Origin: Terriglobia bacterium
GTDB lineage: Bacteria > Acidobacteriota > Terriglobia > Bryobacterales > Bryobacteraceae
DNA length: 47,467 nucleotides
Assembly: GCA_025350105.1 (NCBI GenBank)
Contig: JANXYJ010000054.1
Location: 1-47,467 of the forward strand
Direction: 5' to 3'
A program made the position numbers and the translations under genes. Within the stretch, counting starts at the first letter, position 1; every line of letters starts with the position of its first letter. This document shows positions 2,103-38,007 of the stretch, piece after piece. The notes below the pieces were generated by a model that was not told the DNA's origin, made no database searches, and saw only the letters and a list, made by a program, of their open reading frames with translations.

Positions 2103-2960
2103 CTACCGAATTACGCCCGCCAGCGGACTACTGGCCGAGGCGTACAGCTTCTTTGGCATCCGCCCCGCCAAAAACGCATGGCGGCCGGCTTGCACAGCCA
2201 GGTTCATGGCGGTGGCCATAGTGACGGAGTCCTCGGCTTCGGCAATCGCTGTGTTCATCAGGACGCCGTCGAAACCCAACTCCATGGCAATGGCGGCGTC
2301 GGAGGCGGTGCCCACGCCAGCGTCCACAATCAGTGGAACTTCGCTGATCATCTCGCGCATGATGCGCAGGTTGGTCAAATTCTGAATGCCCAGGCCGCTG
2401 CCGATGGGCGCGCCCAAAGGCATGACGGCGGCGGCTCCGGCGTCGATCAGGCGGCGGGCGTTCACCAGATCGTCATTGGTATACGGCAGTACGACGAACC
2501 CTTCCTTGGCCAGCACGCGGGTGGCTTCCACCAGGCCCTGGTTGTCGGGGAACAGGGTGCGTTCGTCGCCGATCACCTCCAGTTTGACCCAATTCGATAG
2601 GCCCACTTCGCGGCCCAGGCGAGCGGTACGGATGGCTTCCTCGGCGGTGTAACACGCGGCGGTGTTGGGCAGCAGCATGATCTTGCCGCGGTCAATGTAG
2701 TCGATGAGCGAATCACCGGAATGAACCGCGGACTTGTCAAGATTCACCCGGCGTACGGCGACGGTGACCACTTCCGCTCCGCTGGCCTGATGGCAACGCG
2801 CCATTTCCTGGAAACTGCGATATTTTCCGGTGCCCACAAAGAGGCGGGAATGAAACGGGCGGCCGGCGATGGTTAGAGTATCGATTGTTAAAGTATTGGT
2901 GGTTAAAGTATTGGTGGTTAGAGGATCGGTGTTGCGGGGGCCGGCGGCAGGGGGGTTCAT
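2103..2960 (-). CDS. thiG: Thiazole synthase ThiG
   Basis: Forms the thiazole-phosphate ring of thiamine from 1-deoxy-D-xylulose 5-phosphate, dehydroglycine and ThiS thiocarboxylate. Family landmarks are [10 protein letters not shown] (41-50), [11 protein letters not shown] (about 99-109), WVKLEVIGD (with Lys126 as the expected Schiff-base lysine), and the C-terminal [19 protein letters not shown]. At 285 residues it is about 25 longer than usual. The excess is an N-terminal pentapeptide repeat ([10 protein letters not shown]) encoded by a 15-bp tandem array. An AGGAG lies almost against the start codon. No thiS, thiO or thiE gene is adjacent, and no TPP riboswitch motif was recognised upstream. 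Confidence 0.95.
2872..2931. repeat. Four 15-bp tandem units at the 5' end of thiG
   Basis: Units GTTAGAGTATCGATT, GTTAAAGTATTGGTG (twice, identical) and GTTAGAGGATCGGTG run head to tail. Read on the minus strand they encode a repeated [10 protein letters not shown] peptide before the conserved ThiG fold. Confidence 0.9.
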
Positions 2961-3116
2961 ACTCCTAGTTTACTGCGCCTTTTGCGCCCGCAACCTACCC
3001 CAACCCGGCTTCAGATTTACCGGGCAAGATGCCCGCGTGAGCTCCGCGAAAACTCCGCCGTGCCCCTGTAGGAAATGCTTACCGATACCGATGTAGCGAA
3101 AGAGTGAATAAATAGG

Positions 3117-3150
3117 TCCGGCCAACACCAGGAGAGCCGGAGCGTCGTTT
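3117..3150 (+). promoter_or_regulatory. Hairpin in the cpaB leader
   Basis: TCCGGC (3117-3122) pairs with GCCGGA (3136-3141) and is followed within a few bases by a run of five T. It could be a weak attenuator or terminator ahead of cpaB. The stem is short, so this is tentative. The rest of 2961-3172 shows nothing clear. Confidence 0.3.
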
Positions 3151-3172
3151 TTGAAACCAGGGCAGCTTCATT

Positions 3173-3868
3173 ATGAAAAAAGACAGCTTAGTCAAACTTG
3201 TGGCGCTGGCATTGGTGGTGGCCACTGTCGCAACGGTGTTTTACGCGTTGTACATGAATAACCGGGCCAACGGCGCGGTTCCGGAAGCCACTTTGGTGGT
3301 GGCGGCGAAGCCCTTGAAACCAGGAATGGTGCTGGTGGCGGCGGACTTGAAGACGGTGGCGTGGCCAGCGGGTCAGTTGCCGAAAGACGGTTATCAAAAA
3401 CCGGAGCAGTTGGTGGGCAGCACGGTGTTCGATCCGATTGGCGAGCAGGAACCGGTGCTGGGCAGCCGGTTGGCGGCGGCGAAAGATCATGAAACCGGCG
3501 GCGTGCCGGCGGGTATGCGCGCGGTATCGGTGCACGTTACCGATTCCACGGGTGTTTTGGCGCTATTGCGCAGCGGGCAACGGGTGGACGTGCAGGTGGT
3601 GATGGGCCGGGGAAACGGCGGAGACACGCTGGTGCGCACGGCACTGGAAGATCTGGCGGTGTTTTCGGTGACGCCGCAAGCGGAGCAAAGCTCGCAGGGG
3701 CAGAATCTGCCGGTGGTGACGCTGCTGGCCAAGCCGGTGGAGGCAGACTTATTGGCCGCGGCCGATTCCGGCGCCCGGGTACGCTTGACGCTGCGCAATC
3801 CTCTGGATAAGGCTCCGCAGACGCACGGATTGCTGTCGTTGAGTACGGTAGTTCGCGGCGGGCAGTAA
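3173..3868 (+). CDS. cpaB: Flp pilus assembly protein CpaB/RcpC
   Basis: 231 residues. There is one N-terminal membrane anchor (about 8-28), then an SAF-like region (LVVAAKPLKPGMVLVAADL, about 41-60) and a CpaB/RcpC domain containing GMRAVSVHV. The family takes part in Flp/Tad pilus assembly in the periplasm, probably at the secretin-peptidoglycan level. It is followed after 27 bp by tadB and tadC on the same strand, so an operon is likely. The secretin (cpaC/rcpA) and ATPase (tadA/cpaF) genes that usually separate cpaB from tadB are missing here. Confidence 0.88.
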   Translation: MKKDSLVKLVALALVVATVATVFYALYMNNRANGAVPEATLVVAAKPLKPGMVLVAADLKTVAWPAGQLPKDGYQKPEQLVGSTVFDPIGEQEPVLGSRLAAAKDHETGGVPAGMRAVSVHVTDSTGVLALLRSGQRVDVQVVMGRGNGGDTLVRTALEDLAVFSVTPQAEQSSQGQNLPVVTLLAKPVEADLLAAADSGARVRLTLRNPLDKAPQTHGLLSLSTVVRGGQ

Positions 3869-5907: not shown

Positions 5908-7350
5908 GTGAACACAAAACGAGTTTGGTCCAACGCAAGCGCCGCCTTTCTCAACACGGCTTTCCCCAGCGCGGCTTTTCCCCTTGCGACTCTTATCCTA
6001 GCGGCCGTCATCCTTTTTACTGGTTGCCGCTCGCTTTTGCCCGCCGATAAAAATCATCCACTGGAATTCGCCTATGTTGGTCCGGCCACCGCTACGTTGC
6101 GGCAGGATTTGGCAGCGCGGTCGGACACAGTCACGACGGTAAAGCACGGCGAACGGCTGGAAATCATCGATACCCGCAGAAGATTGGTTCGGGTAAAGGC
6201 GGCCGATGGCGCCACCGGGTGGATCGATGCCAATCTGCTGCTGACACAGGAGCAGATGCAGGAACTGACCCGCATTTCCGCTTTGGCAGGAGCCCTGCCA
6301 TCGCAAGGAAAAGCCAATGTAAGTGACGCGCTGAATGGGCACACCGAACCCTACCGCCAGGCGCCCAGCCTGTTCCAGGTGCCGGAGAACGGCAAGGTGG
6401 AAGTATTGGCGCACCGAATCGCGGCACGCGTGGGGCGAACTTCGCCGGTGGCGGTGGCGCTGCAGCCTAAACCGGTACCTAAACCAGCGGTGAAATCCAA
6501 GAAGGGCAAGCGCGAGGAGGCAGCCGCGCCGATTGCACCCGCTGCGGCAAACGCGAATACCGGCAACACCAAAGAGCCTGCTGCCCCGCCGGTCTTCGAG
6601 GACTGGAGCCTGGTGCGCAGCGAAGACGGCCAGGCTGGCTGGGCCTTGTCGCGCATGTTGTACATGGAGATTCCCGACGAGGTGATTCGCTACACCGGTG
6701 GCAACCGGGTGACGGCGTATCTGGATCTGGGCGAGGTGGAAGACGAGGGCCGCAACAAACACAACTGGGTGTGGACCACCACCAGCGGCCGCGGCAAGCC
6801 TTACGACTTTGACAGCTTCCGCGTGCTGATCTGGAATCCGGTAAAGCATCGTTATGAAACGGCGCTCGCCGAACACGACCTGGAAGGGCATTATCCGCTG
6901 AGGGCGCTGGGCGAGCCGGTACTGCAGGCCGCAACGATGCCGCCAACTTCGGAGGCAGGACCAGCGTCTGGGTCCGCCTCACCGTCAACACCGGTACAAG
7001 ACTCAGTGAAGCCAGTGCCGCCGAAAAACCTTTACGACCCCGTGAGGGGCCGCCGCTTTTCGCTGGCGGTGAAGGATCAGCGCGATGGACAAACTTATTT
7101 ACGCAGCTATGAATTACTGGGGCGGCGCGTAAAACTACTTGCGAAGGTTGCGATTGCGGCTGCGCCCGAAGTAGAAGCGCAAACCACCGGCGCGGCATCG
7201 CGTGCCGGGCTGGCCACTCACATAGCGGACCAAACACATAACCCAACACCTAACCAAACACATAACCAAACACATAACGACGCGACAAGCGAGACACCAA
7301 ATTCGCATGCGGGCTGGTGGGACCGCGCCAAGAGCTGGTTGGGCAAGTAG
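5908..7350 (+). CDS. SH3b-domain lipoprotein
   Basis: 480 residues from a GTG start. The signal peptide ends in a lipobox (LFTGC, Cys40), so the protein is probably lipid-anchored. A bacterial SH3-like domain covers about residues 58-112 (TVKHGERLEIIDTRRRLVRV...GATGWIDANLLL). A second, split SH3-like segment runs about 155-250, interrupted by a Lys/Pro/Ala linker. The C-terminal domain (about 255-410) is not recognised. The tail carries a QTHN tetrapeptide array. Bacterial SH3 domains often bind peptidoglycan, so an envelope role is likely, but the precise function is unknown. The signal peptide itself shows decayed 15-bp periodicity (5941-6000). Confidence 0.75.
   Translation: MNTKRVWSNASAAFLNTAFPSAAFPLATLILAAVILFTGCRSLLPADKNHPLEFAYVGPATATLRQDLAARSDTVTTVKHGERLEIIDTRRRLVRVKAADGATGWIDANLLLTQEQMQELTRISALAGALPSQGKANVSDALNGHTEPYRQAPSLFQVPENGKVEVLAHRIAARVGRTSPVAVALQPKPVPKPAVKSKKGKREEAAAPIAPAAANANTGNTKEPAAPPVFEDWSLVRSEDGQAGWALSRMLYMEIPDEVIRYTGGNRVTAYLDLGEVEDEGRNKHNWVWTTTSGRGKPYDFDSFRVLIWNPVKHRYETALAEHDLEGHYPLRALGEPVLQAATMPPTSEAGPASGSASPSTPVQDSVKPVPPKNLYDPVRGRRFSLAVKDQRDGQTYLRSYELLGRRVKLLAKVAIAAAPEVEAQTTGAASRAGLATHIADQTHNPTPNQTHNQTHNDATSETPNSHAGWWDRAKSWLGK
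5941..6000. repeat. Decayed 15-bp periodicity in a signal-peptide coding region
   Basis: Four consecutive 15-mers encode AAFLN, TAFPS, AAFPL and ATLIL. Only the middle units are clearly alike, so this is either an old tandem duplication or chance within a hydrophobic signal peptide. Confidence 0.45.
7231..7278. repeat. Four 12-bp tandem units
   Basis: Units CAAACACATAAC, CCAACACCTAAC, CAAACACATAAC and CAAACACATAAC encode QTHN-PTPN-QTHN-QTHN near the C-terminus of the SH3b lipoprotein. Confidence 0.9.
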
Positions 7351-7391: not shown

Positions 7392-8364
7392 GAACCGCCA
7401 GAAACGGGCCGGTGACGGTGGCGGTGTTAAATTGTACGCCCTTGGGTGAGGTCTTGAAGTGCATGTAGCGGTCCCCCAGAATCACTTCCATGTGGCCCCT
7501 CCGGTAGGCGATTTCGCCTTCCGCGTCGACGATGGCGGGGCCGTGCAGAAGGCCAAAGCCTGAGCCCTTGGCTTCCCAACGAAAATGCCGGGAAACGGTT
7601 TGCTCAATGCCCAAACCGAAAGACGGCAGGTTCAACGAGTGGGTTCCCAACGCCTGGTTGGGCTGATAGGTGGTGAGGGTGTCGTCGGTTGGCGTGAAAT
7701 CGATCAACTGGTTGGTTACGCTGATGCGCTGGAATTCCCACAGCGTCTTCAAACGTACCTCAGAATTTTGGCGGCGCCAGAAGTAGGTCAAATAATCGTA
7801 GGAAAATTTGAAGTTTTCCAGCTTGTGGTAGGCCGAGACGGGGTCGCCCGCGGGGTTGATGGTTTGCGGCCCGGTGAACTCCACGCCATACAGGTTCAGG
7901 TTTTGATGGGCGTTGGTGCCGGAAGTGTGTTTTTCCTGAAAGTAGGAAACGCGAAGGGTGCCATTGGCGAGGGGAACATTCACCTTCATACCAAAGCCGT
8001 TGCGCGCCGGACTGGGGTATTTGAAATTGCCAGGGTCGTTCTGATTGTCGGCCTTGCCCTCCAGAATTTGCACGTTGCCGCCGGTACGCCAGTAAAAGGG
8101 CTCGATGGAGAATCCCGCGCCGGTGTTTACTTTCGATGGCACTTCGCGCGGGGCCGCCAGTTTGGCGCCGGTTTGAACCGTAGGCGTTTCGGCACCCGGC
8201 AATTGGGTATCAGCAGCGGGAGCCGGTGTCGCCGGAGCGGATGTTGCCGGAGCGGATGTTGCGGGAGCGGATGTTGGCCCAGGTGAGGGTGTTGGTGGGG
8301 CTTGTGCCTGGGACCAAACCGCAGGCGACAGCAGAGCAACACACAACATACCGGCATACAGCAT
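7369..8364 (-). CDS. Putative outer-membrane beta-barrel protein
   Basis: 331 residues from the ATG at 8362-8364, which gives a clean signal peptide (MLYAGMLCVALLSPAVWSQA). A Pro/Ala/Ser-rich linker follows (about 22-45, with a TSAPA repeat). The rest consists of alternating, aromatic-rich strands (FSIEPFYWRTG, LRVSYFQEKHTS, FKFSYDYLTYFWRRQ, FRWEAKGSGFGLLHG) and ends in AVRYYFKKQ, consistent with a small barrel. No family is recognised. The frame continues upstream to 8511, but that N-terminus is charged and would bury the signal peptide. Confidence 0.7.
   Translation of the reverse strand: MLYAGMLCVALLSPAVWSQAQAPPTPSPGPTSAPATSAPATSAPATPAPAADTQLPGAETPTVQTGAKLAAPREVPSKVNTGAGFSIEPFYWRTGGNVQILEGKADNQNDPGNFKYPSPARNGFGMKVNVPLANGTLRVSYFQEKHTSGTNAHQNLNLYGVEFTGPQTINPAGDPVSAYHKLENFKFSYDYLTYFWRRQNSEVRLKTLWEFQRISVTNQLIDFTPTDDTLTTYQPNQALGTHSLNLPSFGLGIEQTVSRHFRWEAKGSGFGLLHGPAIVDAEGEIAYRRGHMEVILGDRYMHFKTSPKGVQFNTATVTGPFLAVRYYFKKQ
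8231..8275. repeat. Three 15-bp tandem units
   Basis: GCCGGAGCGGATGTT twice, then GCGGGAGCGGATGTT. On the minus strand these encode the TSAPA linker of the beta-barrel candidate. Confidence 0.9.
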
Positions 8365-10507: not shown

Positions 10508-10661
10508 TCGATTAAGGAGTCCTGCGAAGTTGTTCTATGTATTGACGTTGCGTCTGGCAAATTCTGAGGGCCGCGACGGTCAAAGTCGAGAAAGCACTTT
10601 CTGACTGTACCATGTGCGGGTATTTTGCGGGCCGCGATTTGTAGGCCGAAGCCGGACATCC

Positions 10662-10689
10662 CTTACCAAACCAGCCTTACCAAACCAGC
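10662..10689. repeat. Two 14-bp tandem units
   Basis: CTTACCAAACCAGC occurs twice head to tail in the divergent intergenic region 10508-10723. Its period is not a multiple of three. The rest of the region shows no clear gene or hairpin. Confidence 0.85.
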
Positions 10690-10723
10690 CAACTGGCCAA
10701 GCGGACCCGTTATCATAAATTCC

Positions 10724-11284: not shown

Positions 11285-11414
11285 GGTCTGTTTATTTGGG
11301 AGCTGGAAATAGCGGCCAGGAGAGAGTAGCATTGCCCGAACGGCGAAGCCCGCGAGTGATGGCCGCGATTTTAAGCGAGCGGCGCTAACGGCGGTACCTT
11401 TTCCCCGTATCCTC

Positions 11415-11459
11415 GTCCAATAAAGCGACAGCCAATAGAACGACGTCCAATAAAACGAC
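11415..11459. repeat. Three 15-bp tandem units upstream of the ECF sigma gene
   Basis: GTCCAATAAAGCGAC, AGCCAATAGAACGAC and GTCCAATAAAACGAC in the non-coding leader 11285-11501. Nothing else was recognised in that leader. Confidence 0.85.
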
Positions 11460-11501
11460 GTCGAAGAGATCGCAAGGAAGGCAGACGGAACAAGAGGTCA
11501 C

Positions 11502-12257
11502 GTGGCGCAGGTGGTGGTTTTGCCCGGTGTTGTTTTGCCCGGCGTTGTTTTGCCTAGTCGAGAGGCTGGAGCCCAAGCCGGTAGTGAAGCTCGAATCGAA
11601 AAAGCAACCGGAAGGCGGGGGGAGCGTAGGGTTACGGCGGGAGCGAATTCAGGCATCGCCCGCGCTGCGGCGACGGAGCGCGAGAAGGTGGACGAGGCCG
11701 GGTTGATCCGGGCGGCTCAGGCAGGGGACCGTGCGGCCTTCGATCAATTGGTGCGGACCTACGATCACAGCGTTTTGCGCTTGGCCAACAACATGTTACG
11801 GTCTCCGGAAGATGCCCGTGACGTGTATCAGGAAACGTTTTTGCGCGTGTACCGGAACCTGCACACCTTCCGCTTCGATTGCAGTTTTCACACCTGGGTT
11901 TATCGTATTGCGACGAATTTATGTTTGGATCAGCTGCGGAAGCGCAAGGTGCGGCGGGAGGAACCGGTGATTCAGGTGACACCGGAGGGAACCCGCGACC
12001 GGCTGGATACTGTGGCCGAGGAACATGCCGATGGCGATCCGCTGCGGAGCTTGTATAGCGGGCAGATCCGGCGGCGGGTGCGCGAGGCGCTGGGTGAATT
12101 GACGCCGCGCGAGCGGATGGTTTTCGAACTGCGGCACTATGAAGGTCTGCGGTTGAAAAATATTGGCGAGATTGTAGGAACCACGGAAGAGGCCGCGAAG
12201 AACTGTCTGTTCCGCGCGACACAGAAGATGCGGGCAGCCTTAGTGGAGTTTGCTTAA
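11502..12257 (+). CDS. ECF-family RNA polymerase sigma factor
   Basis: 251 residues from GTG 11502, supported by an AAGAGG ribosome site about 5 nt upstream. Region 2 spans about 65-135 (LIRAAQAGDRAAFDQLVRTYDH, ARDVYQETFLRVYRNLHTF, FHTWVYRIATNLCLDQLRKRK). Region 4 spans about 185-245 (ALGELTPRERMVFELRHYEGL, LKNIGEIVGTTEEAAKNCLF). The first ~60 residues are an unusual extension containing a VLPGV repeat from a 15-bp array. An internal GTG at 11688 would remove it but lacks spacing for a ribosome site. The next gene encodes a zinc-finger anti-sigma candidate, the standard arrangement. Confidence 0.92.
   Translation: MAQVVVLPGVVLPGVVLPSREAGAQAGSEARIEKATGRRGERRVTAGANSGIARAAATEREKVDEAGLIRAAQAGDRAAFDQLVRTYDHSVLRLANNMLRSPEDARDVYQETFLRVYRNLHTFRFDCSFHTWVYRIATNLCLDQLRKRKVRREEPVIQVTPEGTRDRLDTVAEEHADGDPLRSLYSGQIRRRVREALGELTPRERMVFELRHYEGLRLKNIGEIVGTTEEAAKNCLFRATQKMRAALVEFA
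11517..11557. repeat. 15-bp tandem array in the sigma-factor N-terminus
   Basis: GTTTTGCCCGGTGTT and GTTTTGCCCGGCGTT plus a partial third unit encode VLPGV-VLPGV-VLPS. Confidence 0.88.
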
Positions 12258-12307: not shown

Positions 12308-13336
12308 ATGAATACAGAAAATGGTGAAGCAAATTGTGAACCGGTCCGGAAGCAGTTCGCGCTGCTGCTGTATGGCGAGTTGAGCTTCGACCAGGAAGAG
12401 CAGGTGGAGGCGCATCTGGATACGTGCGCCGAGTGCCGACAGTCGCTGGCCAAGCAGCAGACTCTGCATGAAGCGGTGAGTGCCGCGGCGGTGACCGCAT
12501 CGCCCTTCTTGCTGGAGCAGAACCGCGCGCAGTTAAGTGAACGCCTGGACCATGAAGGGCTGGATCCACATGCAAGAACGCCACAAAACAAAAGCTGGTG
12601 GCGTGATTTAGCCGGGGCCTTGCAGGTGGGTTGGGCGAATCCATTTGCGCAGCATGCTGGATTGCGGCCGGTTTTTCAACCAATTCTGGCGCTTGCGCTG
12701 GTGGCTACGGGATTTGTGGGCGCGAGAATGTTGCCGGATAGCTTCAGCATGCCGGGAAATCAAGCTGGACTTTTGGGTAACGCGCGGGTGCGCAACGTGG
12801 CGGCGGATGGAGATGGGCGGGTTCGGATCATCATCGATCAAACCCAGGAACGGACCATCACCGGAAGGATGAGCGATAAGGACATCAAAGCGCTGTTGAT
12901 GTCCGCGGCCAAGGACGCGCCGGATGCCGATTTACGGGCGCAAACGGTAACCATTCTGAGTGAAGCGAATTCAGTAGGAGAGGTTCACGACGCATACAAC
13001 GACGCATACAACAACGATGTTCGGCAAGCGCTGCTGTTTGCTTTGGCCAACGATCACAGTGAAAATGTGCGGGCCGTGGCGATGAAAGGGCTGCGCCGCT
13101 ATGCCGAGGACCCGGCCGTGCAGGGCGCGTTGGCACAGGTCTTGTTGGCTGAGGGCAATGCGCGAGTGCGTACGGACGCCATCGATATGATGTTGAGCAC
13201 GCGGCGGGGGCCGGTGCTGGACCGCCACATCATCGGCGCGCTGCAGGAATTGATGGATCGCGAAGACAACGGCTATGTTCGCGACCAGTGCCGGCGCATG
13301 CTGGAAGCGTTAAAGGCATCTCCGGAAACTTACTAG
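12308..13336 (+). CDS. Zinc-finger anti-sigma factor candidate with HEAT-like repeats
   Basis: 342 residues from ATG 12308 (GAGGAA about 6 nt upstream). The N-terminus has a ZAS-type anti-sigma motif H-x3-C-x2-C (HLDTCAEC, about 35-42). A single hydrophobic segment follows (about 122-137, PILALALVATGFVGARML). The C-terminal part (about 180-340) is helical and HEAT-like, with paired units such as RQALLFALANDHSENVRAVAMKGLRRYA. It lies 50 bp after the ECF sigma gene and should sequester that sigma factor at the membrane. The periplasmic HEAT-like domain would be the sensor or a partner-binding domain. That arrangement is inferred. Confidence 0.82.
   Translation: MNTENGEANCEPVRKQFALLLYGELSFDQEEQVEAHLDTCAECRQSLAKQQTLHEAVSAAAVTASPFLLEQNRAQLSERLDHEGLDPHARTPQNKSWWRDLAGALQVGWANPFAQHAGLRPVFQPILALALVATGFVGARMLPDSFSMPGNQAGLLGNARVRNVAADGDGRVRIIIDQTQERTITGRMSDKDIKALLMSAAKDAPDADLRAQTVTILSEANSVGEVHDAYNDAYNNDVRQALLFALANDHSENVRAVAMKGLRRYAEDPAVQGALAQVLLAEGNARVRTDAIDMMLSTRRGPVLDRHIIGALQELMDREDNGYVRDQCRRMLEALKASPETY
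12989..13012. repeat. Two 12-bp tandem units
   Basis: GACGCATACAAC repeated twice encodes DAYN-DAYN between the membrane segment and the HEAT-like part of the anti-sigma candidate. Confidence 0.85.
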
Positions 13337-14312: not shown

Positions 14313-14320
14313 TTTGCTGA

Positions 14321-14380
14321 AGCCGTGTCTATTTGAGGCGTGTCTGTTCAAGCCGTGTCTGTTCAAGCCGTGTTGGTTGA
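14321..14380. repeat. Four 15-bp tandem units between convergent genes
   Basis: AGCCGTGTCTATTTG, AGGCGTGTCTGTTCA, AGCCGTGTCTGTTCA and AGCCGTGTTGGTTGA fill nearly the whole gap between the PDZ gene and the convergent flagellar-cluster gene. Confidence 0.9.
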
Positions 14381-14906: not shown

Positions 14907-14946
14907 TCGTTCTTGTTAGCGGAGCGTTCGCAAACGCTCGTGGTTC

Positions 14947-24774: not shown

Positions 24775-25286
24775 GCGCGGATCCCATTCATCGGCGGCTG
24801 TTGGGCAGGCCGTTGCATAGGTTGTGGCATTGGCTGCGGCATCGGCTGTGGCATCGGCTGTGGCGTGGAGGGGTCCAGGACGGCATTGCCTAAGTCCGCG
24901 GTGTTTCCTAAATCCGCGGCGTTTCCTAAATCCGCTACCAGGGCACACCCCTGCGGATGGGTGGCCACCAGAAGATTGCGCTGGCCAATGCGCACCACGT
25001 GCAGCAAGTGTTGCGGCGTCAGCGCCAACCGGTCCAGGCTGGTAATTTTGCGGCGATCAGTATTACCGGTTTCCCGGTGAAGGCGCAGCCAGCGGCGGGC
25101 AGCGGCACTCACTTTCTTTGTCACGGTCCTAAGTCCATCACTCTCCGCAGGTGCCCCCGCCTCGCCTCCCGTAATCCCGGCACTAAACCAGCTGGCCCTG
25201 CGCAGGGCCCACATGGCAGCCGCCAGCAAACCCATCACCAACGCCACCGCGCCTAGCTCGCGCAACCAATCCCAATCAGCGTCCAT
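24771..25286 (-). CDS. fliO: FliO-like flagellar protein
   Basis: 171 residues from ATG 25284-25286. It has one membrane segment (about 9-30) and a short basic cytoplasmic beta-rich domain with the FliO/T3SS-type pattern LRLHRETGNTDRRKITSLDRL and HLLHVVRIGQRNLLVATHPQGCALVADLG. FliO helps stabilise FliP. The C-terminal ~50 residues are almost wholly tandem repeats: ADLGNx3, then PQPM x4. Another 18-bp array lies at the start. It overlaps fliP by 4 bp. Identity rests on structure and position because FliO is poorly conserved. Confidence 0.82.
   Translation of the reverse strand: MDADWDWLRELGAVALVMGLLAAAMWALRRASWFSAGITGGEAGAPAESDGLRTVTKKVSAAARRWLRLHRETGNTDRRKITSLDRLALTPQHLLHVVRIGQRNLLVATHPQGCALVADLGNAADLGNTADLGNAVLDPSTPQPMPQPMPQPMPQPMQRPAQQPPMNGIRA
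24812..24871. repeat. Four to five 12-bp tandem units in fliO
   Basis: GTTGCATAGGTT, GTGGCATTGGCT, GCGGCATCGGCT, GTGGCATCGGCT and GTGGCGTGGAGG. On the minus strand they encode PQPM repeats. Confidence 0.9.
24884..24937. repeat. Three 18-bp tandem units in fliO
   Basis: CATTGCCTAAGTCCGCGG, TGTTTCCTAAATCCGCGG and CGTTTCCTAAATCCGCTA encode ADLGN(A/T) on the minus strand. Confidence 0.9.
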
Positions 25287-25290
25287 TTTT

Positions 25291-25341
25291 ACCAACAGCT
25301 TCCCGTTTACCAACAGCTTCCCGTTTACCAATACCTTCGGG
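25291..25341. repeat. 18-bp tandem array just upstream of fliO
   Basis: ACCAACAGCTTCCCGTTT occurs twice, plus a partial third copy, ending 5 bp before the chosen fliO start. Read from an upstream TTG it would encode VNGKLL repeats; it is more probably a leader. The repeat contains GGGAAG on the sense strand. Confidence 0.88.
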
Positions 25342-26970: not shown

Positions 26971-27075
26971 GCGAACCAGTCCTGCGCGAGCCAACCTGGT
27001 GCGAGTCAAGCTTGTGCGCAGCAAGCTGGTTTGAAGCAAGCTGGTTTGAAACAAGCTGGTTTGAAGCACGATTAG
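26971..27075. repeat. Array of about seven 15-bp units between flgD and flgE
   Basis: Clear units start at 26986, 27001, 27016, 27031 and 27046, with GCAAGCTGGTTTGAA as the best-conserved joint. Decayed units begin at 26971 and 27061, the last running past the flgD stop. It fills most of the 150-bp gap between two hook genes. Confidence 0.93.
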
Positions 27076-27473
27076 ACTCCCGCCGTGCTTTGGCCCGTGC
27101 TGGTCTTGCCATTGCTCACCTGCAGCAAGGCCAGAATTTTGTTCAAATCCTGCGTGCTCTGCGTATCTTGTTCGAGCGTGGTGAATTGCGCCAGCTGGGT
27201 CACAAAAGACGTTCCGTCGGCGGGATTTTGCGGATCCTGATTCTTCAACTGCGCCACCAGCAATTGCAGGAACACGCTTTCATTGGCCAGGCCGCCGGCG
27301 GGAACGGTGGTTCCCGTCGTTGTCCCAGGTGTGGTTCCCGCCGGTGTTCCTGGTGTCGATCCCGCTGCGGCGGTCCGTAGCGTTGCCGACATGCGAGCCA
27401 GGTTTAAAGCGCCCCCTTTTACCGCTGGAATCGGTATGCGGGATAGCGAGTCGAGAAGCGGTGTGATGTTCAT
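27072..27473 (-). CDS. flgD: Short FlgD-type hook-cap scaffold protein
   Basis: 133 residues. A Thr/Gly/Pro linker (about 37-60) precedes the FlgD N-terminal signature ESVFLQLLVAQLKNQDPQNPADGTSFVTQLAQFTTLEQ. The usual C-terminal tudor/Ig-like FlgD region is missing, so the protein is about 90 residues shorter than typical FlgD. There is no sign of frameshift; it ends in a normal stop at the repeat array. FlgD caps the growing hook. It sits between fliK and flgE, as expected. Confidence 0.9.
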   Translation of the reverse strand: MNITPLLDSLSRIPIPAVKGGALNLARMSATLRTAAAGSTPGTPAGTTPGTTTGTTVPAGGLANESVFLQLLVAQLKNQDPQNPADGTSFVTQLAQFTTLEQDTQSTQDLNKILALLQVSNGKTSTGQSTAGV

Positions 27474-27553
27474 GAATGTGAGGTCCTTTCGTAAATCGAC
27501 GCGTAGCGTAGGGCTGACTGCGTCACCTTGAAACTGCTGCGTGAATCTGTTCC

Positions 27554-27600
27554 TGCGTCATACTGTGGCTGCGTCAAGCGGTGGCTGCGTCAAGCGAGCT
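27554..27600. repeat. Three 16-bp units at the 3' end of fliK
   Basis: TGCGTCA recurs at 27554, 27570 and 27586 within 16-bp near-repeats (TGCGTCAAGCGGTGGC-type). The array straddles the fliK stop, and its period is not a multiple of three. Confidence 0.75.
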
Positions 27601-29685
27601 GGTCATCCAATCCTGAGAAACCATCCGCGGAGCGGGATGCCCCCGCGGTCCGGCGGCCGGTTGCCGATGATTTGGCTGCTGCGGGTCTTGTTGTGGTTGC
27701 CGGCGTGAACCGCTGAATCCGCCTTGGCCCTGGCCCTCCTGCGGGCTGGTATTCTGATCAGCGTTTTGCGCGCTGTTTGAATCGCGGTTTTGATGATTCT
27801 GCCCCGGCCCATTTTGAGAACTGCCGGCGGCCGCCGCCTGTGCCAGGGCGTTTAGCCCGGAGCCTGAATCCGCCAAGCCGTTGTGGGGCAAAAATGTTTC
27901 GGTGTGAAATCCGGCTTTGTCCAGCGATTGCACCAGATTCGGCAAGCTTTGCCGCAAGGAGCTCTGCAGCGCCCCGTCGGCCGTTCGCACCGCGACCTGC
28001 ACTGCGCCCCTGCGTTGGCTGATTTGCAAATCCACCGGTGCCGCATCACTGGGGCTGACGCGCACCGTCAGATCATGCAGCCGCACAACAGAAGATGCGG
28101 CGGCCGGTGGCGTGTCTCGCCTCATTGAGTTTGCCGCAGAAGCGGAGCCGGTTGCAGTGATCTGCGCTGGTACATGCGCAGCAACCTGAGCGAATGATCC
28201 TGTACTACCCAGTGCCAGCGGGGCCTGAAGCGCGGCCTTACCCGGCCCCTCACCGGACTCCGGCTCGCGCTGGGAATCGGAATCTTGCCAAGCCTGACCG
28301 GAAGAGGCATTTGTACCGCTCTGATGATCAGCGGCTGCTAATACCATGCCTCCGCCGCCGGTTGCTCCGTTCGTATCGCCGGTGATGTTACCTGTACTAG
28401 TGTTGCTGACGGTGTTGCCGACGGTTTTGCCGAGCGTGTTGCCTCCGTCGCCAGGGAAGTGCACGCGGGAAAGAGCATCGGTTGGCGATTCAGTTTGCGG
28501 CTGGGTTTGCGATGCGGGTTGCAATGTTTGTTGCACTGTTTGTTGCACTGAAGTGTCCCGCACATGCGGAGTCAGCAGCGCTGCAAACGCCAGGTCACCC
28601 ATGGTCATCGCGGAGGTGCCGGACACCGCGGCGGTGGTAACCGAGAGATTGCCTGGTTCACCGTTAGCCGCTTGTCCAGACGATGCCAAGCCCGAGGTAG
28701 CCTTACCGCCCGCATCGGCAGGACTCGAAGCCAACGGGCTCCCGGATGAGAGCGCTCGTCCACATGTATTGAAACCAGATGAATTGAAACCAGATGAATT
28801 GAAAACACCTAGGGGAGAGGATGCAAAAGCATCATAACCCGCACCACGAGAATCTGCACCCAGGCATGCTGCCAGATTCTTTTCGGAATCCGTCATTGCT
28901 TTCAGTCCGCTCCCTTTCAGCCCGCTCCCGCCGGAAGTGCCCAATGTGGGAGCTAAGCCAAAAGGGCCGCCAGCGTTTGCCAACTCGCCGGCGTTTGTAC
29001 CATCTCCAGACGTGGGGTTCTGCAGATTTCCTGGCGCGAATCTACTCTGCGATTTCCCCGTCGCAGCAGGCCCCAGCGAAGTCCCTCCCAACATGGATTG
29101 GATCAGCGCATCGGCAATCTGCGACGGCGAGGCCGCGAATGGCAGTGTGGAGCTTCCCGGCATGGAACCACCTGCGTTGCCGCCGTTATGGTCGGCCGCC
29201 CCCGGATGATCCGCTTGGTTGGCACTTGCGTCCTTCGCACGAACATCAGCACCAACACCGGCACCAACATCGGACAGACTCCCGCCGGTTACCAACTGGC
29301 CCTGCTGTTGCAGCAGAAGGTTCACCAGGCTGGCAAAAGCGGACTGTGATTCGGTTGGCCGCTCCGTCTCCGTCACTTGACTCCCTTCGCCGGCGTTGTG
29401 AGGCGCCTTCGGAGACGTGGCTTTGTTGGTTTGCCGGCCGCGGGCAGATCTTACTAAGCCAGGCCGTTGCAAATCAGCCGGCGGTTGCGAGTACGAAGGA
29501 CGCTTTACAGGCGATGAATAGGCCAGCCCATGCTCAGCCAGCCCATGCGCAAAAAGAAGCCCTGCCCCAGCATCGCGATTCGCCCACCGCACCCCAAGCG
29601 CACCAAGCGAAATGGCGGGCTTCAACGCACGATCAGGAAAACCCGCAGCGGGATTTGCACCGGTGATGTTCACGGTGGGATGCAC
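27574..29685 (-). CDS. fliK: Flagellar hook-length control protein FliK
   Basis: 703 residues, from a GTG at 29685 (a second in-frame GTG lies at 29673). Most of the protein is Gly/Ser/Gln-rich low-complexity sequence, as expected for the FliK ruler. The conserved Flg_hook domain is at about residues 535-625 (LHDLTVRVSPSDAAPVDLQISQRRGAVQVAVRTADGAL, QSLPNLVQSLDKAGFHTETFLPHNG). At least five separate tandem arrays are embedded in the ruler part, so its length may vary between strains, which would bear on hook length. It is divergent from flgF. Confidence 0.9.
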   Translation of the reverse strand: MHPTVNITGANPAAGFPDRALKPAISLGALGVRWANRDAGAGLLFAHGLAEHGLAYSSPVKRPSYSQPPADLQRPGLVRSARGRQTNKATSPKAPHNAGEGSQVTETERPTESQSAFASLVNLLLQQQGQLVTGGSLSDVGAGVGADVRAKDASANQADHPGAADHNGGNAGGSMPGSSTLPFAASPSQIADALIQSMLGGTSLGPAATGKSQSRFAPGNLQNPTSGDGTNAGELANAGGPFGLAPTLGTSGGSGLKGSGLKAMTDSEKNLAACLGADSRGAGYDAFASSPLGVFNSSGFNSSGFNTCGRALSSGSPLASSPADAGGKATSGLASSGQAANGEPGNLSVTTAAVSGTSAMTMGDLAFAALLTPHVRDTSVQQTVQQTLQPASQTQPQTESPTDALSRVHFPGDGGNTLGKTVGNTVSNTSTGNITGDTNGATGGGGMVLAAADHQSGTNASSGQAWQDSDSQREPESGEGPGKAALQAPLALGSTGSFAQVAAHVPAQITATGSASAANSMRRDTPPAAASSVVRLHDLTVRVSPSDAAPVDLQISQRRGAVQVAVRTADGALQSSLRQSLPNLVQSLDKAGFHTETFLPHNGLADSGSGLNALAQAAAAGSSQNGPGQNHQNRDSNSAQNADQNTSPQEGQGQGGFSGSRRQPQQDPQQPNHRQPAAGPRGHPAPRMVSQDWMTSSLDAATA
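28400..28447. repeat. Four 12-bp tandem units in fliK
   Basis: GTGTTGCTGACG, GTGTTGCCGACG, GTTTTGCCGAGC and GTGTTGCCTCCG encode GNT/GKT/SNT tetrapeptides on the minus strand. Confidence 0.85.
28493..28552. repeat. Five 12-bp tandem units in fliK
   Basis: GTTTGCGGCTGG, GTTTGCGATGCG, GGTTGCAATGTT, TGTTGCACTGTT and TGTTGCACTGAA encode a VQQT/LQPASQTQPQ repeat. Confidence 0.85.
28765..28809. repeat. Three 15-bp tandem units in fliK
   Basis: TGTATTGAAACCAGA, TGAATTGAAACCAGA and TGAATTGAAAACACC encode FNSSG-FNSSG-FNTCG on the minus strand. Confidence 0.9.
28901..28930. repeat. Two 15-bp tandem units in fliK
   Basis: TTCAGTCCGCTCCCT and TTCAGCCCGCTCCCG encode GSGLK-GSGLK on the minus strand. Confidence 0.8.
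29242..29273. repeat. 12-bp tandem array in fliK
   Basis: AACATCAGCACC and AACACCGGCACC, then a partial AACATCGG, encode a GAGVGADV repeat on the minus strand. Confidence 0.75.
29522..29551. repeat. Two 15-bp tandem units in fliK
   Basis: GCCAGCCCATGCTCA and GCCAGCCCATGCGCA encode HGLAE-HGLAY on the minus strand. Confidence 0.85.
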
Positions 29686-30808: not shown

Positions 30809-30821
30809 AGCAAACGAACCA

Positions 30822-30893
30822 GAAGTAAGGGAATCAAAGTTAAGGAATCGAAGTTAAGGGAATAGAAGTTAAGGGAATAGAAGTTAGGGAATC
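30822..30893. repeat. Five 14-15-bp purine-rich units before flgG
   Basis: Units of the type GAAGTTAAGGGAATA (lengths 14, 14, 15, 15, 14) fill the gap between the flgF stop (30808) and the flgG start (30911). Each carries an AAGG(G)AA stretch resembling a ribosome-binding site. Confidence 0.93.
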
Positions 30894-30910
30894 GAAGGCA
30901 GTTAATCCAT

Positions 30911-32521: not shown

Positions 32522-33328
32522 ATGACGAATACCAAACTCTGCAAAATCATCCTTCTTGCATTCGTGCTTCTAACGGTCCAAGCATGGGCTCCTCTGATGG
32601 CGAAGTCCGCCGTGCAGACACCGCCGCAAGTGGCGGCGGACTCCCCCGTAGCGGCCCCCGCTGTGCCCGCCCCGATGCCAGCCGTCGCGCCGAATGACAT
32701 GAACCGTGTCGTGCCAACGGTGGTCGTGCTAACGGTGGTCGTGCCAACCGTCAATCCCCCAAGCGGAGCACCCGCCGGTTCACCCGGTTCCATCTTTATG
32801 CCGGTGGGCCGTTTGGTCGATTCCACGCGCGATTTCCGAGCCAGCCAGGTGGATGACCTCATCACGGTCGTGGTGAGCGAAAGCGCATCGGCGGTTTCCT
32901 CTGGCGTGACCAACAGCTCGCGCAAATCGTCCGCCAACGCCGGGATTACTTCCTTGGCCGGTCCGCTGAAAGCGGCCAGCGCGCTCACCAGTTTGTTGAC
33001 CACCACGGGCAATCAGCAACTGCAGGGCACCGGCCAGACCAGCCGCAATATGACCTTGACCACCACGCTTTCGGCGCGGGTGATCGGGGTCACCAGCAAC
33101 GGCACGCTGATCATCGAAGGCCGGCGCGAGATCGCGGTCAATTCAGAAAAGCAAGCCGTGATTGTGCGGGGCTTGGTTCGTCCGGAAGATCTGACCACGG
33201 GCAACACTATCGCCTCCACGCGCATCGCCGACCTGCGCATTGCAGTGAACGGCAAAGGCGTGGTGGGTGACGCCGTGCGCCGGCCCAATATTCTGTATCG
33301 CATCATGCTGGGGCTGCTGCCGTTTTAG
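32522..33328 (+). CDS. flgH: Flagellar L-ring protein FlgH
   Basis: 268 residues. The N-terminal hydrophobic signal (about 9-27) is followed by a Pro/Val-rich linker with a VVPTV repeat. The FlgH domain covers about 95-268 (LVDSTRDFRASQVDDLITVVVSESASA, LTTTLSARVIGVTSNGTLIIEGRREI, GLVRPEDLTTGNTIASTRIADLRI). FlgH is usually an outer-membrane lipoprotein, but no lipobox Cys is present: the only Cys is residue 7, before the hydrophobic core. How the L-ring is anchored here is open. The flgI start follows after 7 bp. Confidence 0.95.
   Translation: MTNTKLCKIILLAFVLLTVQAWAPLMAKSAVQTPPQVAADSPVAAPAVPAPMPAVAPNDMNRVVPTVVVLTVVVPTVNPPSGAPAGSPGSIFMPVGRLVDSTRDFRASQVDDLITVVVSESASAVSSGVTNSSRKSSANAGITSLAGPLKAASALTSLLTTTGNQQLQGTGQTSRNMTLTTTLSARVIGVTSNGTLIIEGRREIAVNSEKQAVIVRGLVRPEDLTTGNTIASTRIADLRIAVNGKGVVGDAVRRPNILYRIMLGLLPF
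32708..32752. repeat. Three 15-bp tandem units in flgH
   Basis: GTCGTGCCAACGGTG, GTCGTGCTAACGGTG and GTCGTGCCAACCGTC encode VVPTV-VVLTV-VVPTV in the N-terminal linker. Confidence 0.92.
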
Positions 33329-34916: not shown

Positions 34917-34921
34917 CTTCC

Positions 34922-35948: not shown

Positions 35949-36335
35949 GATTTGTCTACTCTATCACCATGGTTTGTCACCAGGAGACAATATCGATAGA
36001 AATGCCCCTCTCCTCCAACTACGGTGAGGCCTGGAAACCGTATCAGGAGTGGGCCGACGCGCCGCAGAACCGGACCAGCGGCCACCCACCGACATTCACG
36101 GCGGACATGGACGCTTTGTATCGGGCCTAACCGAAAAGAAGGGCCCGCGGGCGATGGACTGCGGCTTCGCGCTTCTGCAGGCTCTGTATGAGCGTCCTTT
36201 GACCCAGTTGACGAATGCAGCTGCTTCCGCCTCTGTCGTCAAAGCTTGACCGGTTTGACATTTCTCCGAAATCAGGGGCTGGTACTTTTAACCTCGACCA
36301 GCTTGAATTTCAGCACGCAACGGAGAAAATCAAAA
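35949..36335. other. Intergenic region, possible gene remnant
   Basis: About 390 bp between the divergent SnoaL-like and PhoX-like genes. A 42-residue frame at 36002-36130 (ending GHPPTFTADMDALYRA) reads like the C-terminal end of a larger protein but has no upstream continuation, so it may be a gene fragment. GGAGAAA before 36336 is the ribosome site of the next gene. Nothing else is recognised. Confidence 0.35.
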
Positions 36336-37958
36336 ATGTTTAAAACGTTCACGCGGGCCTTGCCCGTTTTTTTGGCGGCCAATCTATGGACGATCACTGC
36401 CTTTGCAGCCGACCCCACCTACCCTTCCAATGTGGATGCGAATGCGAAAGTCCCGGGAATGGTAGCCCCCAACATCCTCTCGCCTGAACTGGTGGAGACG
36501 TTGTTGGCCACCGGTTCGATGAAGCTAGAAAACCCGTCCGGCATCATCAAATACTACGGCTACAACGATGACGGGACGTTCCTTCCCACCACGCCGGGCA
36601 GCGCCGTGGAAGCTCACAAAACGGAACCCGACAAGAACACTTACTTGGTATTGGACGACCAAAAGGGCGCGGACCCGTCGTACAACTATGGCAAGCATTT
36701 CCTGTATCAGGGCCACGAAACGGGCCAACAGGGCTACATCACGCGCATCAATCTGGACGCCGTGGATGCGAAACACAAAATCACGCTGCTGGCCACCAAT
36801 GAATCCAGCGGCGCGAAGCTCCCGGTGTTTGACGGCAGCATGTTCTATCCGTTTTCCCAGCATTTGCTCTTCTCCGCTGAAAGCGGCGCGGCCAGCGGCA
36901 TCTGGCAAGCCAGTCTCGATTTTCCGTCCAAAGTGGACAACCTGACCGGCATCATGGGCCAGGGTGGCTATGAAGGAATGCAGGCCGACAACCAGGGCCG
37001 CATCATCATTGTGGAAGATGTAGGCGGATCGTCGGGCGCGGTGAACACGTCGGCGAAGCGGCCCAACAGCTTCGTCTACCGTTTCGTTCCCTACGATACG
37101 GCGAACCTGCAAGCGGGTGGCATTCTGCAAGTGCTGCAAGTGAAGTCGCTCGATGGCACGCCGATGTCGTTCAACAAGTATGCGAGCGCGGATGCGGCCA
37201 TTCTGTCGCAGGACGAGAAGGACCTGCACACCTACGGCAAGAAGTTCGACACCACCTGGATCACTATCCACGATACGAAGGTGAATGGCATGGCTGCGTT
37301 CGATGCGAACGCGTTGGCCAAGGCGAAAAACGGAACACCGTTCAAACGGCCCGAAAATGGCCAGTTCCGCCCGGGTTGGCACTTCAGCCAATTCTTCTTC
37401 GACGAAACCGGCGACACCAACGCGAACAGCCAGGCCAACGCGGGTTACGGCGGATGGGGCTCCATCATGAAGCTCGAATTGGATGAGGACAACACGGGGC
37501 AGATTTCGGTGTTCTACAACTGCGACAAAGCCCATTCGGGTTTTGACAACGTGGCGTTCTGGGACGATGCCCGCGTGGTATTCGTGGAAGACGCCGGCGA
37601 TACACTGCACACGCAACGCGCCGCGCTGGACTCGGCGTATCTGTTCGATCTAGATGTGGACTACAGCGCCGGCGCACAGCCCGTGCGTATTCTGGCCGAG
37701 GGCCGCGATCCATCAGCTACCATCGATTCGCTGCTACTAGGGGGAGGCTTCACCGGCGCCTTCGTGAATGAAGGCGATAACGAAATCACCGGCTGGCATC
37801 TTTCCGATGGCGATTCCACCGTAAGGGGTTTGATGGGAACGAAAGTGCCGAAGCCGTTCCGGAGCGGATGGCGCTTGTTCTGGAACCAACAACACGGCGA
37901 CAACAACGCTTGGGAGATTCTGAGCGCGCAAAAAGCCAACGTGGATCTGGACCGCTAG
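36336..37958 (+). CDS. Secreted PhoX-like (DUF839) protein
   Basis: 540 residues from ATG 36336 (GGAGAAA upstream). There is a signal peptide (MFKTFTRALPVFLAANLWTITAFA), and the rest is beta-propeller-like with DUF839/PhoX-type pieces: KNTYLVLDDQKGADPSYNYGKHFLYQGHE, GGYEGMQADNQGRIIIVEDVGG, FDNVAFWDDARVVFVEDAGDTLHTQ. PhoX enzymes are calcium/iron phosphatases. Whether the metal ligands are present cannot be settled by eye, so it may be a non-enzymatic propeller. It is monocistronic, followed by a 14-bp repeat and a terminator. Confidence 0.72.
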   Translation: MFKTFTRALPVFLAANLWTITAFAADPTYPSNVDANAKVPGMVAPNILSPELVETLLATGSMKLENPSGIIKYYGYNDDGTFLPTTPGSAVEAHKTEPDKNTYLVLDDQKGADPSYNYGKHFLYQGHETGQQGYITRINLDAVDAKHKITLLATNESSGAKLPVFDGSMFYPFSQHLLFSAESGAASGIWQASLDFPSKVDNLTGIMGQGGYEGMQADNQGRIIIVEDVGGSSGAVNTSAKRPNSFVYRFVPYDTANLQAGGILQVLQVKSLDGTPMSFNKYASADAAILSQDEKDLHTYGKKFDTTWITIHDTKVNGMAAFDANALAKAKNGTPFKRPENGQFRPGWHFSQFFFDETGDTNANSQANAGYGGWGSIMKLELDEDNTGQISVFYNCDKAHSGFDNVAFWDDARVVFVEDAGDTLHTQRAALDSAYLFDLDVDYSAGAQPVRILAEGRDPSATIDSLLLGGGFTGAFVNEGDNEITGWHLSDGDSTVRGLMGTKVPKPFRSGWRLFWNQQHGDNNAWEILSAQKANVDLDR

Positions 37959-37970
37959 AAGTCACAATCA

Positions 37971-38007
37971 ACAACAGACTCCAGACAACAGACTCCAGAC
38001 AACAGAC
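37971..38007. repeat. 14-bp tandem array after the PhoX-like gene
   Basis: ACAACAGACTCCAG occurs twice, plus a nine-base third copy, between the stop codon and the terminator. Confidence 0.9.

What the first reader, a model, noticed from the sequence alone, without database searches (positions are those of the whole stretch)
2872..38007. Widespread short tandem arrays with a modal 15-bp unit across the chromosome segment
I count about thirty head-to-tail arrays in 35 kb. About half have a 15-bp period; others are 12, 14, 16, 18, 24 or 35 bp. Inside genes the period is always a multiple of three (12, 15, 18, 24) and the arrays sit in linkers, signal regions or termini (thiG, flhA, flhF, fliA, fliO, fliK, flgH, the sigma factor). 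Between genes 14-, 16- and 35-bp periods also occur. The unit sequences are unrelated to each other, so this is not a dispersed repeat family but a local duplication process, with selection filtering for frame inside genes. That the 15-bp period dominates outside genes as well suggests the process itself favours about one and a half helical turns. The accessory 38-47 kb part is almost free of arrays, which fits later arrival.
Basis: partly seen in the sequence, partly recalled or inferred. Interest (0 to 1): 0.85.

Follow-up and report, generated by a model that had tools for sequence, protein, structure and literature searches.

The report
Lineage-specific excess of short tandem duplications
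This soil bacterium's genome is dotted with short head-to-tail DNA duplications of about 12-18 letters, most often 15, in and between genes, more densely than in its relatives and most densely in this stretch; genes keep almost only those that preserve the reading frame.

Summary
TRF finds 28 separate arrays (score >=50) in the window, 12 with a 15-bp period, against 0.22 per dinucleotide shuffle. The window is a contig of a 4.74-Mb acidobacterial draft genome. In 1.20 Mb sampled from the rest of it the density is 16.8 per 100 kb, against 6.5 in 901 kb of same-genus genomes and 6.6 in 1.31 Mb of loci mostly from other phyla. So there is a lineage-specific excess, and the window is a hotspot: 22 arrays in 20 kb, against a mean of 3.45 and a maximum of 10 in 40 other stretches. 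Coding periods are multiples of three in 96 of 100, noncoding in 41 of 97. Units are largely unrelated. Two-copy arrays carry excess flanking microhomology, pointing to slippage between short direct repeats, with frame filtering in genes. That 15 bp dominates outside genes is only weakly supported: 15 is the mode of a broad 12-18-bp hump (16 of 97; P=0.03 against flat). The array-free 38-47 kb fits the genome average, so it does not show later arrival. Closest known parallel: Borg tandem repeats. The cause of the excess was not found.

The parts
2870..2931 (.). 15-bp array, 4.1 copies, in the thiG ORF (N-terminal end of the protein)
   Evidence: TRF; ThiG Pfam
7229..7278 (.). 12-bp array, 4.2 copies, near the C-terminus of an SH3-domain protein ORF 5908-7350
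   Evidence: TRF; Pfam
8219..8276 (.). 15-bp array, 3.9 copies, in ORF 7369-8511 (no Pfam match)
   Evidence: TRF
10661..10690 (.). 14-bp array, 2.1 perfect copies, at the 5' end of a weakly supported TTG ORF 10625-11284
   Evidence: TRF
11414..11462 (.). 15-bp array, 3.3 copies, intergenic, upstream of a sigma-70 gene
   Evidence: TRF
11517..11554 (.). 15-bp array, 2.5 copies, first 20 codons of the sigma-70-family ORF 11502-12257; 5 of 6 ortholog rows have no residues here (start uncertain)
   Evidence: TRF
12987..13016 (.). 12-bp array, 2.5 copies, in a zinc-finger/HEAT ORF; 11 aa against 5 aa in 6 of 6 ortholog rows
   Evidence: TRF
14320..14373 (.). 15-bp array, 3.6 copies, intergenic between convergent genes
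   Evidence: TRF
14916..14974 (.). 31-bp array, 1.9 copies, at a gene edge
   Evidence: TRF
15238..15314 (.). 15-bp array, 5.1 copies, Gly/Ser/Thr/Ala linker of a FliN-type protein; 26 aa against 0-18 aa in 19 ortholog rows
   Evidence: TRF
15472..15522 (.). 24-bp array, 2.1 copies, same FliN-type gene; 17 aa against 0-8 aa in 19 ortholog rows (5 or 6 in 17 of them)
   Evidence: TRF
16661..16703 (.). 15-bp array, 2.9 copies, N-terminal part of a FliA-like sigma factor; 15 aa against 6-14 aa in 19 ortholog rows, so not a clear insertion
   Evidence: TRF
18364..18422 (.). 15-bp array, 3.9 copies, intergenic between flhA and the flhF-like (SRP54 GTPase) gene
   Evidence: TRF
20588..20625 (.). 12-bp array, 3.2 copies, FlhA N-terminal extension (PVKPIVKPIVKPIA); 14 aa against 0-3 aa in 19 of 19 ortholog rows
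   Evidence: TRF
21647..21762 (.). 35-bp array, 3.3 copies, intergenic
   Evidence: TRF
24815..24864 (.). 12-bp array, 4.2 copies, in the extended N-terminal part of the fliP ORF (or an overlapping fliO-like ORF, strand -); not an insertion against 4 of 6 ortholog rows
   Evidence: TRF
24881..24935 (.). 18-bp array, 3.1 copies, same place, same caveat
   Evidence: TRF
25288..25331 (.). 18-bp array, 2.4 perfect copies, called intergenic but at the start of a possible fliO-like ORF 24771-25331
   Evidence: TRF
27020..27068 (.). 15-bp array, 3.3 copies, intergenic between flgE-like and flgD-like genes
   Evidence: TRF
27307..27365 (.). 24-bp array, 2.5 copies, N-terminal part of the flgD-like gene; 20 aa against 13-54 aa in 7 ortholog rows, so not a clear insertion
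   Evidence: TRF
27553..27596 (.). 16-bp array, 2.8 copies, at the 3' edge of the fliK-like gene
   Evidence: TRF
28400..28443 (.). 12-bp array, 3.7 copies, fliK-like gene (Pfam hit below the curated cut-off)
   Evidence: TRF
28518..28550 (.). 12-bp array, 2.8 copies, fliK-like gene
   Evidence: TRF
28760..28804 (.). 15-bp array, 3.0 copies, fliK-like gene
   Evidence: TRF
28899..28929 (.). 15-bp array, 2.1 copies, fliK-like gene
   Evidence: TRF
30821..30897 (.). 15/29-bp array, 5.3 copies at 15 bp, intergenic between two flagellar rod genes
   Evidence: TRF
32708..32748 (.). 15-bp array, 2.7 copies, N-terminal part of the flgH ORF (start uncertain; not a clear insertion)
   Evidence: TRF
37971..38007 (.). 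14-bp array, 2.6 perfect copies, intergenic, the last array >=50 in the window
   Evidence: TRF

Best explanation
The arrays are independent, locally born minisatellites. In this lineage a slippage-like process duplicates short stretches of about 12-18 bp (mode 15) more often than in its relatives, often where short direct repeats of a few bases already lie about that far apart; further slippage or unequal exchange then adds copies (inferred). Between genes any length survives. Inside genes almost only lengths divisible by three survive, with a lean towards protein ends and disorder-prone residues, and the repeated peptide is then kept by purifying selection while copies diverge mainly at third codon positions. 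Shown: excess, difference from same-genus samples, largely unrelated units, frame filter, microhomology excess, codon-position asymmetry, and insertion relative to orthologs for some arrays. Inferred: that production rather than retention is raised, and slippage as the step. Unknown: the molecular cause, and why this segment is several times denser than the genome mean.
For: Density 16.8 per 100 kb in 1.20 Mb (75 stretches) of the own genome outside the window, against 6.5 in 52 same-genus stretches and 6.6 in 74 loci mostly of other phyla. Noncoding arrays are raised too, so protein selection alone cannot explain it: 102 in 148,867 noncoding bases, 68.5 per 100 kb, against about 19 for the genus and about 34 for the other loci (edge plus intergenic). 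Units largely unrelated. Frame filter 96 of 100 coding against 41 of 97 noncoding. Strict two-copy perfect arrays: flanking match >=3 nt in 7 of 25 noncoding (1.55 expected, P=6e-4) and 10 of 27 coding (2.13 expected, P=2e-5). Copies within coding arrays differ at codon positions 1/2/3 at 12.0/9.6/23.1%. T, N, Q, G, P, S (and V, K) enriched; H, F, R, W, M, I, L, Y depleted; first and last fifths of proteins hold 34 and 27 of 114. Insertions against orthologs for 4 arrays in 3 genes (FlhA, a FliN-type protein, a zinc-finger/HEAT protein). Range of ages: 46 of 230 arrays perfect, median match 91%.
Against: Large flanking matches (6-13 nt) could be remains of a third copy rather than seeds. Of 10 window coding arrays with orthologs, 6 are not clear insertions: one lies at an uncertain gene start and 5 have similar-length or unalignable sequence in orthologs. 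Copy-number variation within a population could not be tested. No close sister genome was found (nearest FlhA about 76% identical in amino acids), so no birth event was seen. PolA with its 5' nuclease domain, RecJ, MutL and Ku are present, so no broken factor was found.
Confidence: 0.66

Rival explanations
1. Retention rather than production: this lineage has weak selection (small effective population), so ordinary duplications persist longer, and linker-rich proteins tolerate them.
For: Low GC (57.3% own against 60.7% and 59.3% in the two pooled genus samples); arrays lean to protein ends and disorder-prone residues; own PolA is slightly more divergent from relatives (66-69%) than the two groups of relatives are from each other (69-72%).
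Against: Copies inside genes show purifying selection (23% third-position against 10-12% first/second-position differences), and the frame filter is very strong. Weak selection alone would not obviously give a 12-18 bp hump.
Confidence: 0.17
2. A length-defined duplication step: two offset nicks about 12-18 bp apart are opened, filled in and rejoined (for example by Ku-type end joining), giving tandem copies of about 15 bp without needing seeds.
For: Hump centred on 15 bp in coding and noncoding DNA with similar 12:15:18 proportions (Fisher P=0.30); Ku is present in this genome.
Against: Microhomology is in clear excess; Ku is also present in 19 of 22 same-genus relatives, whose pooled samples lack the excess; arrays of 3 or more copies need a second process.
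Confidence: 0.1
3. Loss of mismatch repair (MutS) raised repeat instability.
For: MutS1 is over the cut-off in 37 of 41 genomes but not found in this one.
Against: gdhA (next to mutS in 4 of 5 relatives looked at) and the leuA-type ortholog (near mutS in 3 of 5) are also not found here, so this is probably an assembly gap, although gdhA and mutS are apart in G011. MutL is intact. G010 also lacks MutS1 yet has 4 arrays in 85 kb. Mismatch repair is not known to correct 15-nt loops (recalled).
Confidence: 0.03
4. Functional elements: protein-binding iterons between genes and selected peptide repeats inside them.
For: Arrays lie between genes and in flagellar and regulatory genes; a small upper tail of unit similarity (108 against 51 of 2775 pairs).
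Against: No shared motif evident, units fold no better than shuffled units, and a second flagellar contig (with fliG) of this genome has only 2 arrays in 17.5 kb.
Confidence: 0.03
5. Assembly artefact or contaminant contig.
For: The genome is a 206-contig draft; window pieces lie at or just above the own genome's 90th percentile of tetranucleotide distance.
Against: Distance 0.035-0.046 lies within the own range (90th percentile 0.044, maximum 0.079) and below all pieces of 8 relatives compared (0.075-0.26). The frame filter and codon-position asymmetry would not arise by misassembly. Automatic assembly collapsed repeats in the Borg work (PMC9879509, section 6 part 1).
Confidence: 0.01

Closest known systems
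Tandem repeats of Borg elements of Methanoperedens (PMC9879509; abstract, section 6 part 1, sections 9 and 10, section 21 part 1 and found passages read)
   Same: Genome-specific, independently born arrays with unrelated units; in genes divisible by three, between genes mostly not; partial flanking repeats as possible seeds; disorder-promoting residues; A-enrichment on the coding strand of in-gene arrays (here 26.8 against 21.3%); host or relatives poor in them.
   Different: Borg counts are perfect repeats of >=3 units and >=50 nt. Here the host is a bacterial chromosome, arrays are mostly imperfect, units centre on 12-18 bp, noncoding units show no extra A/T skew, and period-15 arrays mostly have 2-5 copies.
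Prokaryotic satellites surveyed by Subirana and Messeguer (PMC6749651; abstract and section 4 part 1 read)
   Same: Some species, such as Methanosarcina, have many satellites; Methanobrevibacter ruminantium has 36 long-repeat satellites that are scattered and mutually unrelated; many lengths are multiples of three.
   Different: Different taxa and detection criteria; no Acidobacteriota entry in Table 1 (species with more than 20 satellites); a 15-bp centre is not described in the part read.
Short repeats of Ca. Solibacter usitatus Ellin6076 (PMC3174227; section 6 and found passages read)
   Same: An acidobacterium reported to have 8.7-fold more repeats than Ellin345, most of them short.
   Different: All repeat kinds pooled; no unit-length spectrum or frame analysis in the text read.

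Membership tests
Slippage-born minisatellites (local, independent origin) | Head-to-tail copies well above chance | tested here: met
   28 against 0.22 per shuffle
Slippage-born minisatellites (local, independent origin) | Units unrelated between loci | tested here: met
   75 period-15 units; 108 of 2775 pairs at 10 or more matches against 51 of 2775 shuffled, a small upper tail
Slippage-born minisatellites (local, independent origin) | Short direct repeats at the ends of the duplicated unit | tested here: met
   Excess microhomology in two-copy arrays; decayed third copies remain a partial confound
Slippage-born minisatellites (local, independent origin) | Copy-number variation between close strains | not testable with these tools
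   No close sister genome found and no reads held; nearest FlhA about 76% identical
Borg-like genome-wide repeat formation | In-gene unit lengths divisible by three | tested here: met
   96 of 100 outside the window, 17 of 18 inside
Borg-like genome-wide repeat formation | Perfect repeats, recently formed | tested here: not met
   46 of 230 perfect, median match 91%
Borg-like genome-wide repeat formation | A-enriched units | tested here: inconclusive
   Coding-strand A 26.8% in in-gene arrays against 21.3% in host genes, similar in ratio to the Borg figures; noncoding units only GC-poorer (48.7 against 54.2%) without extra A/T skew
Dispersed repeat family (REP/MITE/CRISPR type) | Shared unit sequence at many loci | tested here: not met
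   period-15 units only

The most novel reading that the evidence does not exclude
This lineage carries a duplication process with an intrinsic length of about 15 bp (about one and a half helical turns) that acts on coding and noncoding DNA alike and is strongest in particular chromosomal segments: a heritable, region-biased generator of in-frame protein linkers.
Probability: 0.15. Interest if true: 0.65.

Novelty: new member of a known kind. Interest (0 to 1): 0.42.

Why it matters
It gives a bacterial chromosome with a Borg-like abundance of short tandem repeats, with same-genus genomes as a lower-density control. Coding and noncoding length spectra can be compared directly, which separates what mutation offers from what selection keeps, and a raised rate, if that is the cause, could be mapped to a gene by comparing relatives. 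It also shows new linker peptides in conserved flagellar proteins.

Tried and rejected
Flap-nuclease loss (recalled yeast rad27 / E. coli polA-type duplications): rejected as simple absence, since PolA is full length with its 5' nuclease domain and the first 400 alignment columns, as printed, look intact apart from a 4-residue insertion (the G023 rows there were read in a wrong frame and are ignored). RecJ and MutL present. Ku present, but also in relatives. MutS1 not found, but gdhA and a leuA-type gene that lie near it in several relatives are not found either, so not interpretable. Hairpin-driven duplication: units fold no better than shuffled ones. Flagellar genes as a class: the fliG contig has 2 arrays in 17.5 kb, and the flagellar regions of 13 relatives average 8.7 per 100 kb (the non-flagellar genus stretches of that.7). 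Contaminant contig: tetranucleotides fit. A first microhomology simulation (noncoding) was spoiled by N runs and was redone without them. Literature: nine searches listed no paper whose title or shown abstract describes a 15-bp duplication habit in Acidobacteriota; only the library held was searched.

Limits: the own-genome sample was chosen by contig number (often contig starts) plus stretches round polA, mutL, Ku, recJ and mutS-like genes, not at random. Twenty of the 52 same-genus stretches are flagellar regions. Six further acidobacterial loci (L002-L007, 123 kb, 9 arrays) and the short loci L102-L131 and L232-L243 were left out of the group counts, the former because at least two duplicate genus records. 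The 74 other loci are flhA regions and include one acidobacterial contig. Genes were called by my own codon-usage script with longest-ORF starts, so some arrays counted as coding may lie upstream of the true start (fliP, flgH and the sigma factor in the window). Five arrays in a gene-poor start of one contig (L198, first 3.7 kb) were dropped from the 97-array noncoding count; four of them have period 15. With them it is 20 of 102. The hotspot P value is for the best sliding 20 kb, uncorrected for that choice.

Full report
What was checked. TRF on the window gives 57 overlapping rows at score 30. At score 50, after merging overlaps, there are 28 arrays, 12 of them with period 15; fifty dinucleotide shuffles gave 11 arrays in all, 0.22 per shuffle. 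The 5-kb profile is 1, 2, 6, 4, 4, 8, 2, 1, 0, 0.

Where it comes from. The window is contig C175 of a 4.74-Mb, 206-contig draft genome. Its FlhA is nearest to Acidobacteriota MAGs, among them Ca. Sulfopaludibacter (71%) and Bryobacteraceae (66%) records; the same-genus genome G003 has a contig of the same length as the Ca. Sulfopaludibacter record, so the genus is probably that one (inference). The window's tetranucleotide profile fits the rest of its genome (distance 0.035-0.046; own stretches: median 0.030, 90th percentile 0.044, maximum 0.079; pieces of 8 same-genus genomes 0.075-0.26), so it is not an obvious contaminant.

Is the density unusual? Outside the window, 75 stretches of the same genome (1,201,834 bases) hold 202 arrays, 16.8 per 100 kb. 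Fifty-two stretches of same-genus genomes (900,973 bases) hold 59, 6.5 per 100 kb; 74 flhA-centred loci mostly of other phyla (1,310,392 bases) hold 86, 6.6 per 100 kb; eight family- and order-level stretches (143,448 bases) hold 3. The non-relative loci above 54% GC have 5.0 per 100 kb. Period-15 arrays number 64 in the own sample, 9 in the genus and 7 in the other loci. Per noncoding base the other loci (about 34 per 100 kb) are closer to the own genome (about 69) than the genus is (about 19). Single relatives vary from 0 to 12.9 per 100 kb, with 25 in one 20-kb sample. The excess is thus about 2.6-fold against the genus overall. The window stands higher still: its best 20 kb has 22 arrays, while 40 other 20-kb stretches have a mean of 3.45 and a maximum of 10 (negative-binomial P=1.5e-6, uncorrected for choosing the best 20 kb). 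A second flagellar contig with fliG has only 2 arrays in 17.5 kb, and the flagellar regions of 13 relatives average 8.7 per 100 kb, so being flagellar is not the whole reason.

Length spectrum. In genes (own sample): 12 (14), 15 (44), 18 (17), 21 (5), 24 (4) and others; 96 of 100 divisible by three. Outside genes or at their edges, after dropping five arrays in a gene-poor start of one contig: 11 (3), 12 (7), 13 (14), 14 (7), 15 (16), 16 (10), 17 (4), 18 (11) and others, n=97; 41 divisible by three. The difference in divisibility has P=9e-18, and the 12:15:18 proportions do not differ between classes (P=0.30). This fits one mutational length distribution with frame filtering in genes. Within 12-18 bp, 15 is in mild excess outside genes (16 of 69, P=0.03; with the window, where it was first seen, 20 of 76, P=0.004). 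A TRF-free count of exact matches of 13 bases or more at each spacing also peaks at 15 in a 920-kb part of the sample (coding 21 of 69, noncoding 15 of 91). The share of 12-18 bp among noncoding arrays is higher than in the other loci (69 of 97 against 12 of 33, P=7e-4).

Mechanism. For strict two-copy perfect arrays I measured how far the match runs past one unit and compared it with artificial duplications of the same DNA. Three or more extra bases occur in 7 of 25 noncoding arrays (1.55 expected) and 10 of 27 coding arrays (2.13 expected). This favours slippage or misannealing between short direct repeats; remains of third copies are a partial confound. Units do not fold better than shuffled ones (112 coding, 99 noncoding). 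Noncoding units are GC-poorer than random noncoding DNA (48.7 against 54.2%). Arrays show a range of ages (46 of 230 perfect, median match 91%).

Selection in genes. Copies in coding arrays differ more at third codon positions (23.1%) than at first (12.0%) or second (9.6%). T, N, Q, G, P and S are enriched, with V and K slightly, and arrays lean to protein ends (34, 21, 19, 13, 27 by fifths). Coding-strand A is 26.8% in arrays against 21.3% in their genes. Against orthologs, the FlhA array has 14 aa where 19 of 19 ortholog rows have 0-3; the 24-bp FliN-type array 17 aa against 0-8 in 19 rows (5 or 6 in 17); the 15-bp FliN-type array 26 aa against 0-18; a zinc-finger/HEAT protein 11 aa against 5 in 6 of 6. 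One more, at an uncertain gene start, is absent in 5 of 6. The other 5 of the 10 arrays with orthologs are not clear insertions, and 8 coding arrays had too few orthologs in the loci held to test (at least two pairs of rows are the same genome).

Candidate causes. PolA with the 5' nuclease domain, RecJ, MutL and Ku are present. MutS1 is not found here while over the cut-off in 37 of 41 genomes searched, but gdhA, next to mutS in 4 of 5 relatives, and the leuA-type ortholog, near it in 3 of 5, are not found either, so an assembly gap is likely; G010, also without MutS1, has few arrays. No cause is established.

Comparison with the literature. The nearest description is that of Borg tandem repeats (PMC9879509): unrelated units, in-gene lengths divisible by three, flanking partial repeats, disorder-promoting residues, A-enrichment, near absence in the host. 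This works like that, but differs in being mostly imperfect, chromosomal and bacterial. A survey of prokaryotic satellites (PMC6749651) names species with many satellites, some of them scattered and unrelated, and the Solibacter genome paper (PMC3174227) reports many short repeats in another acidobacterium without a length spectrum in the text read. I rate this a new member of a known kind, with an interesting length spectrum and an unexplained hotspot.

Noticed in passing
L198:1-3746 (G000:C11): Contig start without called genes, with four 15-bp arrays of different units, among them a perfect array of 7.9 copies at the very contig end; arrays may cause contig breaks and so be undercounted.
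   Followed up: partly
G000 whole genome: MutS1, gdhA and a leuA-type ortholog, near one another in several relatives, are not found in this 96.5% complete draft; MutS1 and gdhA are also not found in G010.
   Followed up: partly
L249, polA gene: PolA of this genome has a 4-residue insertion in the 5' nuclease domain relative to five relatives.
   Followed up: no
window:42325-45807: Large outer-membrane beta-barrel protein with a carboxypeptidase-regulatory-like domain in the part without arrays of score >=50.
   Followed up: no
window:34907-35278: Small ORF after the flagellar genes matching the photosynthetic reaction-centre cytochrome c family (CytoC_RC), perhaps a multihaem cytochrome relative.
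   Followed up: no
window:8465-10507: NHL-repeat beta-propeller protein with a TIG domain; no array of score >=50 inside it although arrays lie on both sides.
   Followed up: no
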